Below, piece after piece: positions 1,903 to 28,334 of a stretch of 49,679 nt of DNA. The notes below the pieces were generated by a model that searched no databases, had not been told where the DNA came from, and was given only the letters and a program-made list of their open reading frames with translations. The DNA lies in NCBI GenBank assembly GCA_023266115.1, contig JAHFRU010000019.1:1-49679 (forward strand). Reading direction: 5' to 3'. Made by a program: the position numbers and the translations under genes. Origin of the DNA: Gammaproteobacteria bacterium (lineage in GTDB: Bacteria; Pseudomonadota; Gammaproteobacteria; VBWC01). Positions within the stretch are counted from its first letter, which is position 1. Each line of letters opens with the position of its first letter.

Positions 1903-2475
1903 TCAGCGGATCACCACCCGGGTTCCGGGTTTGATCCAGGCGGCGAGCTGTTCGATCTGCTGGTCGGTCAATGCGACGCAACCCTGCGTCCAGTTAGTAC
2001 TGGCATGGATATCGGGATCGGCCCGTCCCAGGCCATGGATGCCGATATATCCGCCCAGCCGCGTATTTTGCGGTGGCAGGCGGTGGTGATCGATAGCAAG
2101 CTGGATATCAAGATACGTTGACAGGTCGATAAGATGTGCACGGAATGCGCGTTCGGCGTGTTCGCGGGTCGGGTAGTTCAGGCCGAAAAACAGCCGGAAA
2201 TCACTTCTGTCGTTTACCCAGGCAATCTCGAACGTGCCCAGTGGCGTTTGCCCGTCGCCTTCGGAGCGCGTTTCGGCGGCACCGTTACGTCCGATAGCTA
2301 CGCCGTCGAAGCGCTTCACGACACGGTCAGCGGAGTTTACCGTCAGCGTCCGGGCACGGGTATCGACGAGAATCCATGGGTCCGGGTCCGCCAGGGCGAT
2401 GCCCGTAAACAGGCAAGCCGTCAGGACGATACCCGCCATCGTTGTGATTGACCCAACTACCTTCAGAAAAGTCAT
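1903..2475 (-). CDS. L,D-transpeptidase (YkuD family), periplasmic
   Basis: 190-residue secreted enzyme. The ATG at 2475 gives MTFLKVVGSITTMAG and a hydrophobic signal ending near ALA-DPDPW; the frame is open to 2514 but that adds only a non-signal-like extension. The YkuD core runs from WILVDTRARTLTV (about 35) to the C-terminus, with G-D-G-Q-T-P-L-G-T-F, then IGIHGLG and the catalytic Cys in TQGCVALTD. There is no LysM unit, unlike the other Ldt in this cluster. The gene lies 93 bases downstream of cysZ on the same strand and may be the last gene of the queF-kinase-cysZ run. Confidence 0.87.
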   Translation of the reverse strand: MTFLKVVGSITTMAGIVLTACLFTGIALADPDPWILVDTRARTLTVNSADRVVKRFDGVAIGRNGAAETRSEGDGQTPLGTFEIAWVNDRSDFRLFFGLNYPTREHAERAFRAHLIDLSTYLDIQLAIDHHRLPPQNTRLGGYIGIHGLGRADPDIHASTNWTQGCVALTDQQIEQLAAWIKPGTRVVIR

Positions 2476-2568
2476 TGTTTTAATGGCTGTTCCCGACCAT
2501 AGCGCTGTGCGCACTATACCTCTTTTATCGGTCGAGCGTTGATCGGTCTGAAGTGCGTTGTTGCTTGA

Positions 2569-3318
2569 TCAGAGGCCGGTCACCGACTCTGTCCGACGCA
2601 GGCGCGCCACGTAAAGCGCCGTTGCGCCGGCGACCGCGGCCGGCATCACGACGAAGTTTACCACCGGAATCATGCTCGCGATCATGGTCGCCCCGCCAAA
2701 TCCCAGCGTCAGACTGCGGTGGTTCTTTACCAGGCGACGCTGTTCCGGAAACGCCATGCGCTGGTTACCAAGCGGATAATCAAAATATTCCAGTGCGAGC
2801 ATCCAGCTGCCAAATATCGCCCATATGAAGGGCGCGGCAGCATTGACCACCGGTACCAGAAACAGTAGCAGCAGCGGTATTGCGCGCAACAGCAAGTACC
2901 CTGCCTTGACCAGTTCGCCGTGGATGGCCGGTAATACGCCGGCGATCAGATCGCGAACTCCTGACGAAGACGGCGCGGATTCCCCCGTCAGGTAGCGCTC
3001 TACCGATTCCGCCAGCAGACCGTTGAACGGTGCGCCGAGCAGATTGGCGATGACTGTGAACGTAAAAAACACCACGATGCCGGCGGTAATCACGAACAGC
3101 GGCCACAGCACCCATCCCAGCCATTGCAACCAGGTGGGGACTGCGGCCAGAAGACCGTCAATCAGGTGACCGAACATCTGCCCGCCGAGCAAAACAATAC
3201 CGGCGAACAACAGGGTATTGATCAGCAGCGGTACCACCACATAGCGACGCAGGCTCGGCACGCGCAACAGGCTGTATCCTCGCAGGAGGTATCCGGCACC
3301 GGTGATAAATTCACGCAT
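2569..3318 (-). CDS. cysZ: CysZ-like sulfate transporter / EI24-domain membrane protein
   Basis: 249-residue inner-membrane protein. It opens with the family hallmark F-I-T-G-A-G-Y-L-L-R-G, then R-R-Y-V-V-V-P-L-L-I-N before the first long hydrophobic segment. A second segment (WVLWPLFVITAGIVVFFTF) and the motif NLLGAPFNGLLAE are characteristic of CysZ, which imports sulfate for cysteine synthesis. Length matches the usual 250. It lies 12 bases after the sugar kinase gene on the same strand, indicating cotranscription. No other cys genes are in the window, so the sulfate role rests on family identity. Many gammaproteobacteria carry it apart from the cysteine regulon. Confidence 0.87.
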   Translation of the reverse strand: MREFITGAGYLLRGYSLLRVPSLRRYVVVPLLINTLLFAGIVLLGGQMFGHLIDGLLAAVPTWLQWLGWVLWPLFVITAGIVVFFTFTVIANLLGAPFNGLLAESVERYLTGESAPSSSGVRDLIAGVLPAIHGELVKAGYLLLRAIPLLLLFLVPVVNAAAPFIWAIFGSWMLALEYFDYPLGNQRMAFPEQRRLVKNHRSLTLGFGGATMIASMIPVVNFVVMPAAVAGATALYVARLRRTESVTGL

Positions 3319-9556: not shown

Positions 9557-11614
<2,058 letters not shown>

Positions 11615-23605: not shown

Positions 23606-24202
23606 ATGAGCGATCCGGATCTGAAGGAACAGATAGGTGAACTGAAATCACGCCAGGAAATGGCGCGCCAAGCGTGGTTAAAGGCAGGTAATCGGGATCT
23701 TCTGAAATTCTTTGTCGACATAATGCCGAAAGCCATCGAAGCGGAGCGCTGCAGTATTTTTATACTTGATCCGATTAGCCACAAAGTATGGCTGCAGTGT
23801 GGTACCGGCGTCGAGGAAAATGAAGTCATCGTACCGAAAAGCACCTCGCTCGTAGGCCGCGTTATTTCCTCCGGGAAATCGATTATTGACGATGAATTGC
23901 GAGCCAAGGTCGGAGAGCATGACGTTATCGCGGTCAGAACCGGGTTCGTTGCCTATGACGCTATTTGCGTACCGATTATCGGCGCGACCACCAGGAAGGT
24001 CGTTGGCGCGATTCAGGTCCTCAACAAGAAGCGCCGCAACAAGTTCAGCGATGAGGACCTGAGCACCATTGAACGTCTCGCATTTCATATTTCACGCAAC
24101 ATCGAGGACATTTTTCTGCGTCAGGAAATGGAGCGTATCTCCGTAGAGCTGGGCAGTAAAATTCTTGAGCTGGAAAAGCTGATCGTGAGCAAGTCCGGCT
24201 GA
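23606..24202 (+). CDS. GAF-domain sensory protein
   Basis: 198 residues from ATG at 23606. A single GAF domain fills most of it: SIFILDPISHKVWLQCGTG, then VPKSTSLVGRVISSGKSIIDD, VPIIGATTRKVVGAIQVLNKK and F-S-D-E-D-L-S-T-I-E-R-L-A-F-H-I. Such domains bind cyclic nucleotides or other small ligands. An N-terminal helix (about 1-30) and a C-terminal helix (EMERISVELGSKILELEKLI) could form a coiled coil for dimerisation. No catalytic output domain is attached, so it may signal through a partner. A remnant of a CHASE2 sensor gene lies convergently just downstream. Confidence 0.85.
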   Translation: MSDPDLKEQIGELKSRQEMARQAWLKAGNRDLLKFFVDIMPKAIEAERCSIFILDPISHKVWLQCGTGVEENEVIVPKSTSLVGRVISSGKSIIDDELRAKVGEHDVIAVRTGFVAYDAICVPIIGATTRKVVGAIQVLNKKRRNKFSDEDLSTIERLAFHISRNIEDIFLRQEMERISVELGSKILELEKLIVSKSG

Positions 24203-24244
24203 CGGGCAATATCCCCGCGTTCCACAATTTTTTGCCCACACGAT

Positions 24245-24544
24245 TACGCAATGAGCCAATAATACTTCAGTTAACCCGGCGAGCATGGCTCGACGCCACG
24301 TCCAATGGCCTTCTTGCTGCAAGCTTTTTTCAACAATATCGACGATCATGATTCTTTCGCCGAGCCGGGGTGATTCGGACAACAACGCTTTCAGCCGGAC
24401 GTCATAAAACATTGCGTCCAGTCGCTGTTGCAACATCGCAAGAGGACCGACATCAGCGATCTCGATCAACAAGGCGCTGGCCGTGAGCGCTACACCGGCC
24501 AAAACCGGGAATGCCTTTCCTTTAACGTTCGCGAGCCAACCCAT
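24245..24544 (-). pseudogene. 5' remnant of a CHASE2-domain sensor gene
   Basis: From ATG at 24544 the frame reads MGWLANVKGKAF, a transmembrane helix (VLAGVALTASALLIEIADVG), and then LDAMFYDVRLKALL and RIMIVDIVEKSLQQEGHWTW. The pairing of D-x-R-(F/L) with (I/V)-V-D-I-D-E-x-S-L-x-x-x-G-x-W-P-W is characteristic of the start of CHASE2 domains in adenylate cyclases and kinases. Family resemblance stops after about residue 100, where the frame runs into the GAF gene on the other strand. The rest of CHASE2 and any catalytic domain are missing. Confidence 0.65.
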
Positions 24545-24707
24545 CAAACGTAACCCGTGGTTAACGCCGACGAACGGAGATTTTCCTGCCCCGTACTATG
24601 TCGGGCAGAGCACGTCACACTCGAGATAAATCAAGGCTGGTGGACGCACAGGCGGGTACACCATCGGGGATGGAAAATAACCGAGAAGCAGGTAACTCGC
24701 ACCGGGT

Positions 24708-25163
24708 TTAGACGGTCGCAATAGCCTTGACCGTTTCGAGGACCTTATCGTAAGGGATGGATGTTTCTCTGTGGTTCAGCATGTCACGATGCAAGAGGCG
24801 GACGATATTCCTGAAATGTTCGGGTGAGAGATTGATGCCGGATTCCACGACCGCCTGGAATACTTCCGCAGCGAGCTTATAGACCACGTCCTGATCGGTG
24901 GTAACCCTGTATATCGCACCAGGTTCTGCCACCAGCTCGTTGGTGCGCATGGGACCGCGATCGTTTAGCAGCCAATCGAGCGAGATACCGCTTTTTCTGG
25001 AGTAATCGATCAATTTTTCGTAGGGCGGGGTACCACGGTATTTCCATTGCGAAAGTCGTTTCTTTTCGACATTCAAACGATCCGCAACGTCAGCGTCGTA
25101 ACGCAGTCCTTCCGCTTGTTTGATTCTATCGATAGCTCTAATCGCGATATTCTTCGTTTCCAT
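24708..25163 (-). CDS. Phage CI-like transcriptional repressor (N-terminal domain type)
   Basis: 151 residues from ATG at 25163; a TTG 9 bases upstream is possible. Residues 5-65 are a lambda-type helix-turn-helix of the phage CI repressor N-terminal family: DADVADRLNVEKKRLSQWKY, then PPYEKLIDYSRKSGISLDWLL. The usual C-terminal S24 autoprotease is absent, so it cannot be cleaved in the RecA/LexA fashion. The remaining helices (YKLAAEVFQAVVESG, EHFRNIVRLLHRDML) may oligomerise. It is divergent from a serine recombinase gene, and two palindromes lie between them. Confidence 0.8.
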   Translation of the reverse strand: METKNIAIRAIDRIKQAEGLRYDADVADRLNVEKKRLSQWKYRGTPPYEKLIDYSRKSGISLDWLLNDRGPMRTNELVAEPGAIYRVTTDQDVVYKLAAEVFQAVVESGINLSPEHFRNIVRLLHRDMLNHRETSIPYDKVLETVKAIATV

Positions 25164-25175
25164 TCCTTCCAACCC

Positions 25176-25222
25176 TTGACAAATACCTCAATACGAGGTT
25201 ATATTATGCCTCATAATGAGGC
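25176..25222 (+). promoter_or_regulatory. Recombinase promoter with two palindromic operators
   Basis: TTGACA (25176-25181) is a perfect -35 and TATATT (25200-25205) a good -10, spaced by 18. Operator 1, ACCTCAATACGAGGT (25185-25199), occupies the spacer and touches the -10. Operator 2, GCCTCATAATGAGGC (25208-25222), is a perfect palindrome over the start site. Both share CCTC-N5-GAGG and their centres are 23 bases apart. A bound protein would block the recombinase promoter. A minus-strand -10 (CATAAT) near 25206 could serve the repressor gene. Confidence 0.7.
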
Positions 25223-25300
25223 TCTTTGTTCTTTCCTGAATGGTAACACGCCAAAGACATTTTGGGTCAATTCGACTAAATCTGGCCACGGAGGGTAACG

Positions 25301-26002
25301 ATGAAACTGATCGGATATGTTCGGTTGTCCGAGGGTGATAAAGAAGAAGATCAATACAATCAATTGCAACAATACTGCAATTTATTTAATTTTGAATTGG
25401 TGGATGTCGTCAAGGCTCACGAATACAGGTCGTTGGACGGTGCGGACGCCGAAGCACGAGGTAACACCATCATCGGCTGCATAACGAAAAAAAAAGCCGA
25501 CGGCATCGTGATGCAACGCCTCGATCGGTTTTTCCCTCAAAACACTGACAGCCTTATCGTGGCGATACGTCTGAGGCAACGTGGATTAACGATTCACGTG
25601 ATTGAGGACTACATTAATACCGCCACGGTTAGCGGTTGGCTTTCCATTGCCCTCAAGGCCTTTATCAGCAAATACCCGCTTGGCGATCGGTCGGAGGCAG
25701 ACACAAACGGGCCTGTGTCAGTCCTTCCGGAAGAGTCCGCGTTTCCCGCACCTTTTGGTTGTGTACGCTTCGGTAGCAGCCTGTTTCGTGACTCATCGGT
25801 TTGGCTGATCCGCGAAAAAATCATGCATATGTATCGCAAGGAAGGAATACGTATAGAGGAAATTATTTCACACCTGCAGGCGCAAGGTATCGCCGCCCCC
25901 AGTGGCGGCTCACTCTGGCACGCCGCCGATATCCTCGGGTTACTGCGGTATCACGATATCCTCGGAAAATTACCGCTGCATCGCAAATATGACTCAGTGT
26001 GA
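25301..26002 (+). CDS. Compact serine recombinase (resolvase plus recombinase domain)
   Basis: 233 residues; ATG at 25301 with ribosome site GGAGGG. Residues 1-125 are a resolvase catalytic domain: IGYVRLSEGD with Arg8 and nucleophile Ser10, ADGIVMQRLDRFF with the conserved Asp75-Arg76, and VIEDYINTATVSGW. The second conserved Arg of the usual L-D-R-L-x-R motif is replaced by Pro79. Residues about 145-225 resemble the DNA-binding recombinase domain of large serine integrases: APFGCVRF, REKIMHMYRKEGIRIEEI, and LQAQGIAAPSGGSLWH before a final LLRYHDILGKL. The zinc ribbon and coiled coil of true large integrases are absent. It is probably controlled by the divergent repressor. Confidence 0.8.
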   Translation: MKLIGYVRLSEGDKEEDQYNQLQQYCNLFNFELVDVVKAHEYRSLDGADAEARGNTIIGCITKKKADGIVMQRLDRFFPQNTDSLIVAIRLRQRGLTIHVIEDYINTATVSGWLSIALKAFISKYPLGDRSEADTNGPVSVLPEESAFPAPFGCVRFGSSLFRDSSVWLIREKIMHMYRKEGIRIEEIISHLQAQGIAAPSGGSLWHAADILGLLRYHDILGKLPLHRKYDSV

Positions 26003-26156: not shown

Positions 26157-28334
26157 CTACGGCGGAAACACCGGGCCGGTCGGGCCGGCGGTATAGCGCG
26201 GGCGCGACAGCAGGTTATCCACGGGGATCGCGTCAGGGTGATCGCGGTAGTAGAGCAACGGCACGCCGGGCGGATGGTGCTTGCGGATGCCGATGATCTC
26301 GAAGTCCTTGAGATTGAGTATGCCCTTCTTTTGCAGCGCGGCGAGGTGTTCGGGTGACAGATCGAATCGCAGCACCGGCAACAGCGCCGCCTCTAACTCG
26401 GTATCCAGCTCGGCCTCTACGTACGCGGCCTCGCGCTCGGCAAGGATCTCGTCGATGCGCTCGTCCACCCGCGCGACGATCTCCTCTTCGGTGGGCGTGA
26501 TGCCATCGGCCATGAACTTGGCGATGACCTCGGCACGAATCTGGGCACCCTCGTCGCCCTCGATCTGCGGGCGGGTCACCACTTCGAACGTGTAGAGCAG
26601 CGCGTTGCGCTGCTCGTTTATCTCACGCTGGCTGAGGCAGAGGATCTGGTCGACCTGGTTCTGGCGCAGATCAATGCGTTTGGCGACGTAGGGAATGTTA
26701 CTGATCAGCCGCTTCTCGCCGAACCGTTCAAGAATCTGGTCGATAGATAGCTGGTAGAGATCAGGCTCGCCCATCGGGTCGTGCTGCTCGAAGGGCCGTC
26801 GGTCAGTGCCGGCTGCAAACGCAGTGAAGAAGGGCAGATGATCGGCGGCATCGTACACGCGATAGCGCAGGTGCGTGGGCGCCTCGGGAGGAACGCGCAG
26901 CTCATCGCGGATGACGATATGCTCGACGGCTTGTACCTGCTTGTCGATGGCGGCGCGGCCCCAGATGGCGATGCCGGTGGCGTTGACGATGGCGCCGTCG
27001 GGCCGGATGGCGACCTGATGGAGCGTGGTGTAGAAAGGGTCCCAGCGCCGCCGCGCGATTGCTACCCGGCCGGTGACGACATCAGGCATGGCGGCGTCGG
27101 TCTTGTCCTGGATGCGCTCGGAGTACATCGCGTCGGCGATGAGACCGGCGGCCTCGCCGAGGGTAAACAGGATTCCGGCGATAATACCGCTGGCTATCAG
27201 CCCCGCGCCGCCGAACAGTACCAGCAGCACATAGAAACCTAGGAACGGCAGTATCTCGAATAGCAGATCGATGTCGACACCTGTTTCGACGTTCCAGCCG
27301 AGCAAGCCGTTGCCATCGGTGATCGGCGTCAGGTCGATGAGGATGTGGAAATCCGGATCGAAGAAGTCGTCGATTTCGTATTCGCCGCTGATGTCGATGC
27401 GCAGCGTATTCGTCGTCACCGGGCCGTTGGGGCCTATCAGCACGAGCGGCGCAATCGTGATGTCGTCCAGCGTGCCGATCTTATTGCTCTTGGGGTTCGA
27501 TGGCGATTTGCGCAGCGGCCAGCTGTAGGTGCCGAGGTCATTCAGCTCGGCGCGCCGGTTGTAGGCATCGTCGCTGAGGACACCGTAGAGGTGCTTGCGT
27601 GTCGCCATCGCCACATCCGCGCCTGCCGGAAGAAAGTTGATCGCGTCGTCGACGCTGCCGCGGGTATCGAGGAGACTGTCGGGTTCGGGGGCGGTTTGGA
27701 GGAGAAGATTGAGATACAAGCCGAATGCCGCGGGGTGATTACCGGCGGCGGGCAGCTTGCGAAATCCCAGGTCCTGCAGACGCTTGAACGCGCCGACGCC
27801 GCCGAGGTCAAGATCGCGATCGATGAATGGCGTCAGCCGCTCCATGATCGCTTCCTTGGTAACGCCTTGCGTTAATGCAAACGGCAGCAGCGGGCTGGCG
27901 ATGTCGACCAGCGCTACACTCAGCGTGGCGCCATCGAGCGCGCCGTCGTCGTCGCGGTGAGTATCGAACACCATGCGGACGAAGAGATCAAACGCGGCAT
28001 CGGGAAAAAACAGTGGTGGTGACACCCGGGTCAGGTCGAACACCGCGTGTACCCTCACGTCAGCGCCCAGCGGGTGATCAAAGAGGATTTCCACTTCGAA
28101 GGCGTTTTTTTCTTCGGACACCTTTTTGGCCGGCACGGCATCCGGGTGTGGTTCGTACAGGCGGTCGGTGGTGGCGGGCTCGGCCAGCATGAAGGTCAGC
28201 GCCGGATCGGTAAGCTCGACCATGACGGGAATTGCACCCGCATCGACGAGCGTCAATAGTGTGTAACTCAGGAATCGCTCGCCGAGCAGCATCTCGATAT
28301 CGAACCCGGAACGAACGCGGTCTTGGTCAAGCAT
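26157..28334 (-). CDS. Large unrecognised protein with a central membrane segment
   Basis: 725 residues from ATG at 28334 with ribosome site AGGAG. No signal peptide. Residues 1-355 look like repeating mixed alpha/beta or beta-rich units: the opening GFDIEMLLGERFLSYTLLTL, several aspartate-rich strands, and around 310-335 LRIDISGEYEIDDFFDPDFH. Residues about 360-402 form one or two hydrophobic helices rich in Gly (LFGGAGLIASGIIAGILFTLG). The C-terminal third contains charged helices (TPTEEEIVARVDERIDEILA) and HLAALQKKGILNLKDFEIIG. The opening faintly resembles lipid-binding TULIP-type proteins, but I would not assign it. It follows a frameshifted di-haem oxidoreductase gene on the same strand. 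Confidence 0.75.
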   Translation of the reverse strand: MLDQDRVRSGFDIEMLLGERFLSYTLLTLVDAGAIPVMVELTDPALTFMLAEPATTDRLYEPHPDAVPAKKVSEEKNAFEVEILFDHPLGADVRVHAVFDLTRVSPPLFFPDAAFDLFVRMVFDTHRDDDGALDGATLSVALVDIASPLLPFALTQGVTKEAIMERLTPFIDRDLDLGGVGAFKRLQDLGFRKLPAAGNHPAAFGLYLNLLLQTAPEPDSLLDTRGSVDDAINFLPAGADVAMATRKHLYGVLSDDAYNRRAELNDLGTYSWPLRKSPSNPKSNKIGTLDDITIAPLVLIGPNGPVTTNTLRIDISGEYEIDDFFDPDFHILIDLTPITDGNGLLGWNVETGVDIDLLFEILPFLGFYVLLVLFGGAGLIASGIIAGILFTLGEAAGLIADAMYSERIQDKTDAAMPDVVTGRVAIARRRWDPFYTTLHQVAIRPDGAIVNATGIAIWGRAAIDKQVQAVEHIVIRDELRVPPEAPTHLRYRVYDAADHLPFFTAFAAGTDRRPFEQHDPMGEPDLYQLSIDQILERFGEKRLISNIPYVAKRIDLRQNQVDQILCLSQREINEQRNALLYTFEVVTRPQIEGDEGAQIRAEVIAKFMADGITPTEEEIVARVDERIDEILAEREAAYVEAELDTELEAALLPVLRFDLSPEHLAALQKKGILNLKDFEIIGIRKHHPPGVPLLYYRDHPDAIPVDNLLSRPRYTAGPTGPVFPP

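What the first reader, a model, noticed from the sequence alone, without database searches (positions are those of the whole stretch)
24708..26002. Self-contained repressor / twin-operator / compact serine recombinase module
A CI-like repressor without an autoprotease domain is divergent from a 233-residue recombinase that has resolvase and recombinase domains but no zinc ribbon or coiled coil. Between them lies a near-consensus promoter (TTGACA, 18 bp, TATATT) overlapped by two CCTC-N5-GAGG palindromes 23 bp apart. This has the layout of a phage-style genetic switch, with a recombinase that lacks one usual catalytic Arg (Pro79). No other phage genes are present, so it may be a stand-alone switch or minimal mobile element. 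The sites are seen; repression and recombination are inferred.
Basis: partly seen in the sequence, partly recalled or inferred. Interest (0 to 1): 0.8.

Follow-up and report, generated by a model that had tools for sequence, protein, structure and literature searches.

The report
Stranded phage switch with broken recombinase
A bacterium has kept just the control switch of a vanished temperate virus (its repressor, two repressor-type DNA sites and one early gene), and the enzyme made by that early gene has lost much of its cutting site yet is still being preserved, which suggests it now works as a DNA-binding regulator rather than a DNA cutter.

Summary
The anatomy is real. A CI-type repressor (24708-25163, -) diverges from a 233-aa serine-recombinase-like protein (25301-26002, +). 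Between them lies TTGACA-18-TATATT with two CCTC-N5-GAGG palindromes 23 bp apart, one in the -35/-10 spacer and one just past the -10. The palindrome pair occurs once in each of the two sequenced species of the genus and in 6 of 20,000 shuffles.

It is not a self-contained mobile element. The same pair occurs in temperate phages and prophages as CI | HTH gene(s) - compact serine recombinase - CII-like. The window copy is that switch stranded in a chromosome, with the genes between CI and recombinase lost. The compact architecture is normal for the phage family.

Besides Arg71 to Pro79, the family-invariant Gln14, the Asp-x-Gly-Val-Ser motif, Arg45 and the helix-E Arg are gone; Tyr6, Arg8, Ser10, Asp67 and Arg68 remain. 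The C-terminal DNA-binding domain keeps 16 of 19 family-conserved columns, the catalytic part 16 of 46. Both genes show purifying selection (dN/dS 0.12 and 0.19, few substitutions). Best reading: a chromosomally fixed phage-derived switch whose recombinase is probably catalytically dead and kept for DNA binding. Repression and any function are inferred.

The parts
24708..25163 (-). CI-type repressor, 151 aa, ATG at 25163; HTH plus short helical C-terminal domain, no autoprotease
   Evidence: PF07022; relatives in G001, G084 prophage, G333, G083, G200; AlphaFold model with HTH and three C-terminal helices, pLDDT 74; nearest fold phage 186 CI, 2fjr, E 0.024
25176..25205 (+). promoter TTGACA-18-TATATT (TATATG in the sister species) facing the recombinase gene
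   Evidence: consensus match only
25185..25199 (.). operator-like palindrome 1, ACCTC-AATAC-GAGGT, in the -35/-10 spacer
   Evidence: arms and spacer unchanged in G001
25208..25222 (.). operator-like palindrome 2, GCCTC-ATAAT-GAGGC, just downstream of the -10, over the expected start site
   Evidence: arms kept in G001, one spacer change A to C
25251..25265 (.). weaker third palindrome CCAAA-GACAT-TTTGG between promoter and start codon; possible second protein site, speculative
   Evidence: region identical in G001
25301..26002 (+). compact serine-recombinase-like protein, 233 aa, much of the active site lost, C-terminal DNA-binding domain conserved
   Evidence: PF00239; phage relatives; conserved-column count; dN/dS 0.19; AlphaFold fold of serine recombinases, pLDDT 79; tree

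Best explanation
This is the immunity (lysis-lysogeny) switch of a temperate phage, stranded and kept in a bacterial chromosome. In the phage form CI faces a rightward early operon of small HTH (Cro-like) gene(s), a compact serine recombinase and a CII-like activator. In the window the genes between CI and recombinase and everything downstream are gone, so the recombinase-like gene is now the sole gene directly behind the twin-operator promoter. CI dimers most likely bind the two CCTC-N5-GAGG sites side by side, block the promoter (one site between -35 and -10, one over the start) and probably regulate their own gene. The recombinase-like product has lost several residues needed for strand cleavage but kept its DNA-binding domain and reading frame; most likely it no longer recombines DNA and acts as a DNA-binding (Cro-like or other regulatory) protein. 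Shown: gene pair, sites, phage homology, active-site changes, constraint since the two species diverged. Inferred: CI binding, repression, loss of catalysis, regulatory role.
For: Same divergent CI/recombinase pair in a prophage of another order (G084; CI 42%, recombinase 28% identical) flanked by tail, endolysin, Dam methylase, CII-like activator and tyrosine integrase genes, in IMG/VR virus L020 (CI, two small genes, recombinase 33%, CII-like), and an XRE-recombinase pair in Microcystis phage MACPNOA1. The window recombinase nests in the phage clade (99/99 support) on a stem of 2.82 changes per column against 0.23-1.0 for neighbouring phage tips; recombinase identity falls to 28-33% where G084-L020 is 58%, while CI is not faster than between phages. 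Of 46 columns conserved in phages in the catalytic part 16 are kept, in the C-terminal part 16 of 19 (Fisher p 0.0003); changed are Gln14 to Lys, DxGVS to AxEYR, Arg45 to Glu, Arg71 to Pro, helix-E Arg to Leu. R8, R68 and R71 are the proposed phosphate-contacting arginines of Tn3 resolvase (PMC4499144). dN/dS 0.12 and 0.19; excess of synonymous changes p 0.002 for the recombinase, 5e-5 combined. Twin operators unique in both genomes.
Against: Only two genomes of this order are held, so constraint rests on 22 substitutions and weakens (p 0.03 for the recombinase) if a transition bias is allowed for. The nucleophile Ser10 and Tyr6, Arg8, Asp67 and Arg68 remain, so residual activity is not excluded. 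The exact operator sequence is not conserved in the phage relatives; only a palindrome near the CI start is. Overall identity to L020 is not lower in the catalytic part than in the C-terminal part (34% vs 31%): the loss is specific to the conserved motif columns. Alignment of the helix-E region is uncertain (pLDDT under 50 at 127-146).
Confidence: 0.62

Rival explanations
1. Plain prophage debris: a decaying immunity region with no present function; the open frames survive because decay is recent.
For: Loss of all other phage genes and of conserved active-site motifs; long stem branch; a neighbouring ORF (CHASE2 piece, 24092-24547) is also truncated, and ~380 bp next to it are replaced by ~68 bp in G001.
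Against: dN/dS well below 1 in both genes and intact frames in two species with about 5% nucleotide divergence; operators kept; the conserved C-terminal columns are selectively kept. Recent decay does not fit such a long stem followed by slow change.
Confidence: 0.22
2. A working minimal mobile or phase-variation element: CI controls an active compact recombinase that excises, integrates or inverts DNA nearby.
For: Nucleophile Ser10 and Tyr6, Arg8, Asp67, Arg68 retained; the phage relatives look catalytically intact at these motifs; small serine recombinases can integrate phages (phi-RSM, cited in PMC8987985).
Against: Arg45, Arg71, the DxGVS motif, Gln14 and the helix-E Arg are lost; no flanking repeats or tRNA fragments; single copy, same place in the sister species with no rearrangement of the module.
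Confidence: 0.08
3. CI is a general chromosomal regulator of a wider regulon and the recombinase is a passenger.
For: CI-family relatives stand in chromosomes without a recombinase: divergent from a sigma-70-family gene in G333, and from a small HTH-like gene near a two-component system in G200; G333 has its own palindrome pair there.
Against: The twin site occurs nowhere else in either genome, and single extended palindromes occur elsewhere only once per genome, on different contigs with different sequences.
Confidence: 0.08

Closest known systems
Immunity region of lambda-like temperate phages (CI | cro - cII), here the G084 / IMG/VR L020 type with a compact serine recombinase between the small HTH gene and the CII-like gene
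   Same: divergent CI, promoter overlapped by palindromes, early gene to the right, homologous CI and recombinase
   Different: no Cro-like gene, no CII, no replication, integration or structural genes; recombinase active-site motifs lost
Phage 186 CI (PDB 2fjr)
   Same: CI-type HTH without a LexA-type autoprotease (the latter from general knowledge); nearest solved relative by sequence and fold
   Different: weak similarity (E about 0.02); operator sequences and C-terminal domain not shown to be alike
Small serine recombinases (gamma-delta/Tn3 resolvase, Hin/Gin; N-terminal domain of TP901-1 integrase)
   Same: catalytic-domain fold; Tyr6, Arg8, Ser10, Asp67, Arg68
   Different: Gln14, Arg45, Arg71, the D36/S39 region and the helix-E Arg changed; C-terminal domain resembles a short PF07508
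Vaccinia F16, a predicted catalytically inactive serine recombinase (Senkevich 2011, cited in PMC11980589)
   Same: precedent for a retained but inactive serine recombinase homologue
   Different: poxvirus nucleolar protein, no CI partner or operators
'Grounded'/exapted prophage genes (reviews PMC6379469, PMC8987985)
   Same: phage genes kept in a chromosome under purifying selection
   Different: no described case found of a CI plus inactive recombinase pair

Membership tests
phage CI-type repressor (PF07022) | CI HTH domain above gathering score | tested here: met
   43.3 bits against cutoff 22
phage CI-type repressor (PF07022) | binds operators at its own divergent promoter | not testable with these tools
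   sites present and conserved in the sister species; binding not shown
LexA-like autocleaving CI | S24-type peptidase domain | tested here: not met
   no peptidase match; 151 aa
active serine recombinase | nucleophile Ser10 with Tyr6 and Arg8 | tested here: met
active serine recombinase | Arg45, Asp67, Arg68, Arg71 and the helix-E Arg all present | tested here: not met
   Asp67 and Arg68 kept; Arg45 to Glu51, Arg71 to Pro79, helix-E Arg to Leu127
compact phage serine recombinase family (L020-L034, G084, MACPNOA1) | nests in the family tree and shares the C-terminal domain signature | tested here: met
   99/99 clade; 16 of 19 C-terminal conserved columns
phage immunity region | cro-like gene between CI and the next early gene | tested here: not met
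   78 bp between palindrome 2 and the start codon, no room for a gene
mobile element / prophage | attachment or terminal repeats, integrase, empty site | tested here: not met
   no flank repeats or tRNA fragment; no other phage gene noted nearby; empty site not testable outside the genus

The most novel reading that the evidence does not exclude
A phage lysis-lysogeny switch has been domesticated into a two-gene cellular circuit in which a serine recombinase, its catalytic site dismantled but its DNA-binding domain kept, has taken over the Cro (opposing regulator) position against a CI repressor, giving a self-contained bistable switch.
Probability: 0.25. Interest if true: 0.72.

Novelty: new variant of a known kind. 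Interest (0 to 1): 0.48.

Why it matters
If the protein is regulatory, it would be a clear case of a recombinase turned into a transcription or DNA-binding factor inside a captured phage switch, with phage relatives that still carry the catalytically intact-looking form for comparison. It also draws attention to a phage immunity layout (CI | small HTH - compact serine recombinase - CII-like), for which I found no description, in which the recombinase has no assigned role although several of these phages also carry tyrosine recombinases.

Tried and rejected
Mobile-element reading: no flanking direct repeats, no inverted repeat over 11 bp, no duplicated tRNA end, single copy in the genome. Wider regulon: twin pattern unique, single extended palindromes elsewhere not shared between the two genomes. 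Plasmid or ICE origin: repressor has no plasmid match, recombinase only 26% matches to cyanobacterial plasmid recombinases. Direct viral-contig search with the single window proteins found nothing; profiles were needed. NCBIfam gave no equivalog. Structured RNA in the region: only the three tRNAs. Intrinsic terminators reported on the palindromes are at the level of shuffles and lie in or over the promoter, so they are read as operators. PDB fold search of the repressor is weak (few homologues). Compact recombinases in G329 and G198 belong to other branches. Empty-site comparison outside the genus was impossible: only two genomes of the order are held.

Full report
WHAT IS THERE. A CI-type repressor gene (24708-25163, minus strand, better start ATG 25163 with a GGAAGGA upstream) and a 233-aa serine-recombinase-like gene (25301-26002, plus strand) diverge from a 138-bp intergenic region. 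This holds TTGACA (25176) - 18 bp - TATATT (25200), 11 of 12 consensus bases and the only such match in 1.7 kb, although a scan of shuffles gives about two. Two palindromes, ACCTC-AATAC-GAGGT (25185-25199) and GCCTC-ATAAT-GAGGC (25208-25222), lie 23 bp apart, the first inside the -35/-10 spacer and the second just past the -10. A single CCTC-N5-GAGG is expected 0.7 times in the window by chance, but twin sites with shared arms arise in only 6 of 20,000 dinucleotide shuffles of the intergenic region, and the pair occurs at exactly one place in this genome and in that of the only other species of the order that is held, with none in control patterns.

CONSERVATION IN THE SISTER SPECIES. G001 (same genus, about 95% nucleotide identity) has the locus at the same place with the same neighbours. 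Its intergenic region differs at 2 of 138 bases: the last base of the -10 and one base in the spacer of palindrome 2; all arms are intact. Repressor dN/dS is 0.12 and recombinase dN/dS 0.19, similar to ordinary neighbouring genes. Both genes therefore look maintained, but on thin data.

ORIGIN. Searching 369 genomes of the class found the CI family in six and the recombinase in three. In G084, from another order, both stand divergently (CI 42%, recombinase 28% identical) inside a prophage: tail protein, endolysin, Dam methylase, a phage-type hypothetical gene, CI, then rightward a 95-aa small protein, the compact recombinase, a CII-like activator (phrog_4834, E 2.5e-31) and tyrosine integrases. 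Profile searches of IMG/VR gave about 15 viral contigs with 240-271 aa relatives. The closest, L020, again has a CI (PF07022), two small genes, the recombinase (33%) and, further right, a 190-aa protein that by eye resembles the G084 CII-like protein (Pfam gives it no match), with a TTGTCTAT-N5-ATAGACAA palindrome near the CI start. Microcystis phage MACPNOA1 has an XRE gene overlapping the recombinase start. The small protein of G084 has a relative (31%) in the same place next to the CI of G200. The window module is thus a phage immunity switch from which the small gene(s) between CI and recombinase, and everything downstream, have been lost.

THE RECOMBINASE IS PROBABLY DISARMED. Against 14 phage members, 46 columns of the N-terminal part are conserved and the window keeps 16; of 19 in the C-terminal part it keeps 16 (Fisher p 0.0003). 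Kept: Tyr6, Arg8, Ser10, Asp67, Arg68 (resolvase numbering). Changed: Gln14 to Lys, the DxGVS motif to AxEYR, Arg45 to Glu, Arg71 to Pro, helix-E Arg to Leu, with a 6-residue deletion after position 17. R8, R68 and R71 are the arginines proposed to hold the scissile phosphate (PMC4499144). Every phage member has Arg45 and Arg71, so the loss is specific to this lineage. In the tree the window/G001 pair nests in the phage clade (99/99) on a stem of 2.82 changes per column, against 0.23-1.0 for neighbouring tips, and 0.03 since the two species split. The CI did not speed up (42-48% to G084 and G333). A caution: total identity to L020 is similar in both halves (34% and 31%); what differs is the retention of conserved positions. 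AlphaFold still gives the serine-recombinase fold (pLDDT 79; best PDB hits are serine integrases and resolvases), with a helix E to residue 133 followed by a low-confidence stretch to 146.

HOW IT MOST LIKELY WORKS. CI dimers on the twin sites would block the rightward promoter and, from the same place, tune the leftward CI promoter. The recombinase-like product, made when CI lets go, would bind DNA through its retained C-terminal domain. A Cro-like role is attractive because it is now the first gene opposite CI, and a third palindrome (CCAAA-N5-TTTGG, 25251-25265) lies between promoter and gene, but nothing here shows it. Decay without function is the main rival. A mobile or invertible element is unlikely: no flanking repeats or tRNA duplication, one copy, fixed place.

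WIDER CONTEXT. Relatives of this CI also occur in chromosomes without a recombinase: divergent from a sigma-70-family gene in G333, with its own palindrome pair ATACAC-N5-GTGTAT / TGTGT-N7-ACACA, and from the small HTH-like gene in G200 near a two-component system.

NOVELTY. Captured prophage genes are known (reviews PMC6379469, PMC8987985), and an inactive serine recombinase is known from vaccinia (F16, cited in PMC11980589). A CI / inactive-recombinase pair was not found in the literature held. I rate it a new variant of a known kind.

Noticed in passing
L007/L013 (G333), CI at L013:9745-10218, sigma gene L013:8385-9716: A chromosomal CI-family regulator divergent from a sigma-70-family gene, with two palindromes between them; could be a phage repressor recruited to control a sigma factor.
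   Followed up: partly
L015 (G200) 9557-10390: CI-family gene divergent from a 102-aa protein related to the small gene upstream of the phage recombinase, next to a sensor kinase/response regulator pair and without a recombinase: possibly a second stranded switch.
   Followed up: partly
L008 (G084) 2318-3067, L020-L034, L016: A phage family of 240-271 aa serine recombinases, in G084 placed between a small HTH-like gene and a CII-like gene, in phages that may also carry tyrosine recombinases; its function is unassigned.
   Followed up: partly
window 24092-24611: Truncated CHASE2-domain ORF; about 380 bp here correspond to only ~68 bp in the sister species, a small insertion or deletion next to the module.
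   Followed up: no
window 26157-28334 (-): 725-aa protein with no Pfam or PHROGs match directly downstream of the recombinase gene, convergent with it; conserved at 94% in the sister species.
   Followed up: no
L014 (G083), about 1042-1080: A 39-bp inverted repeat with 15-bp arms upstream of another CI-family gene.
   Followed up: no
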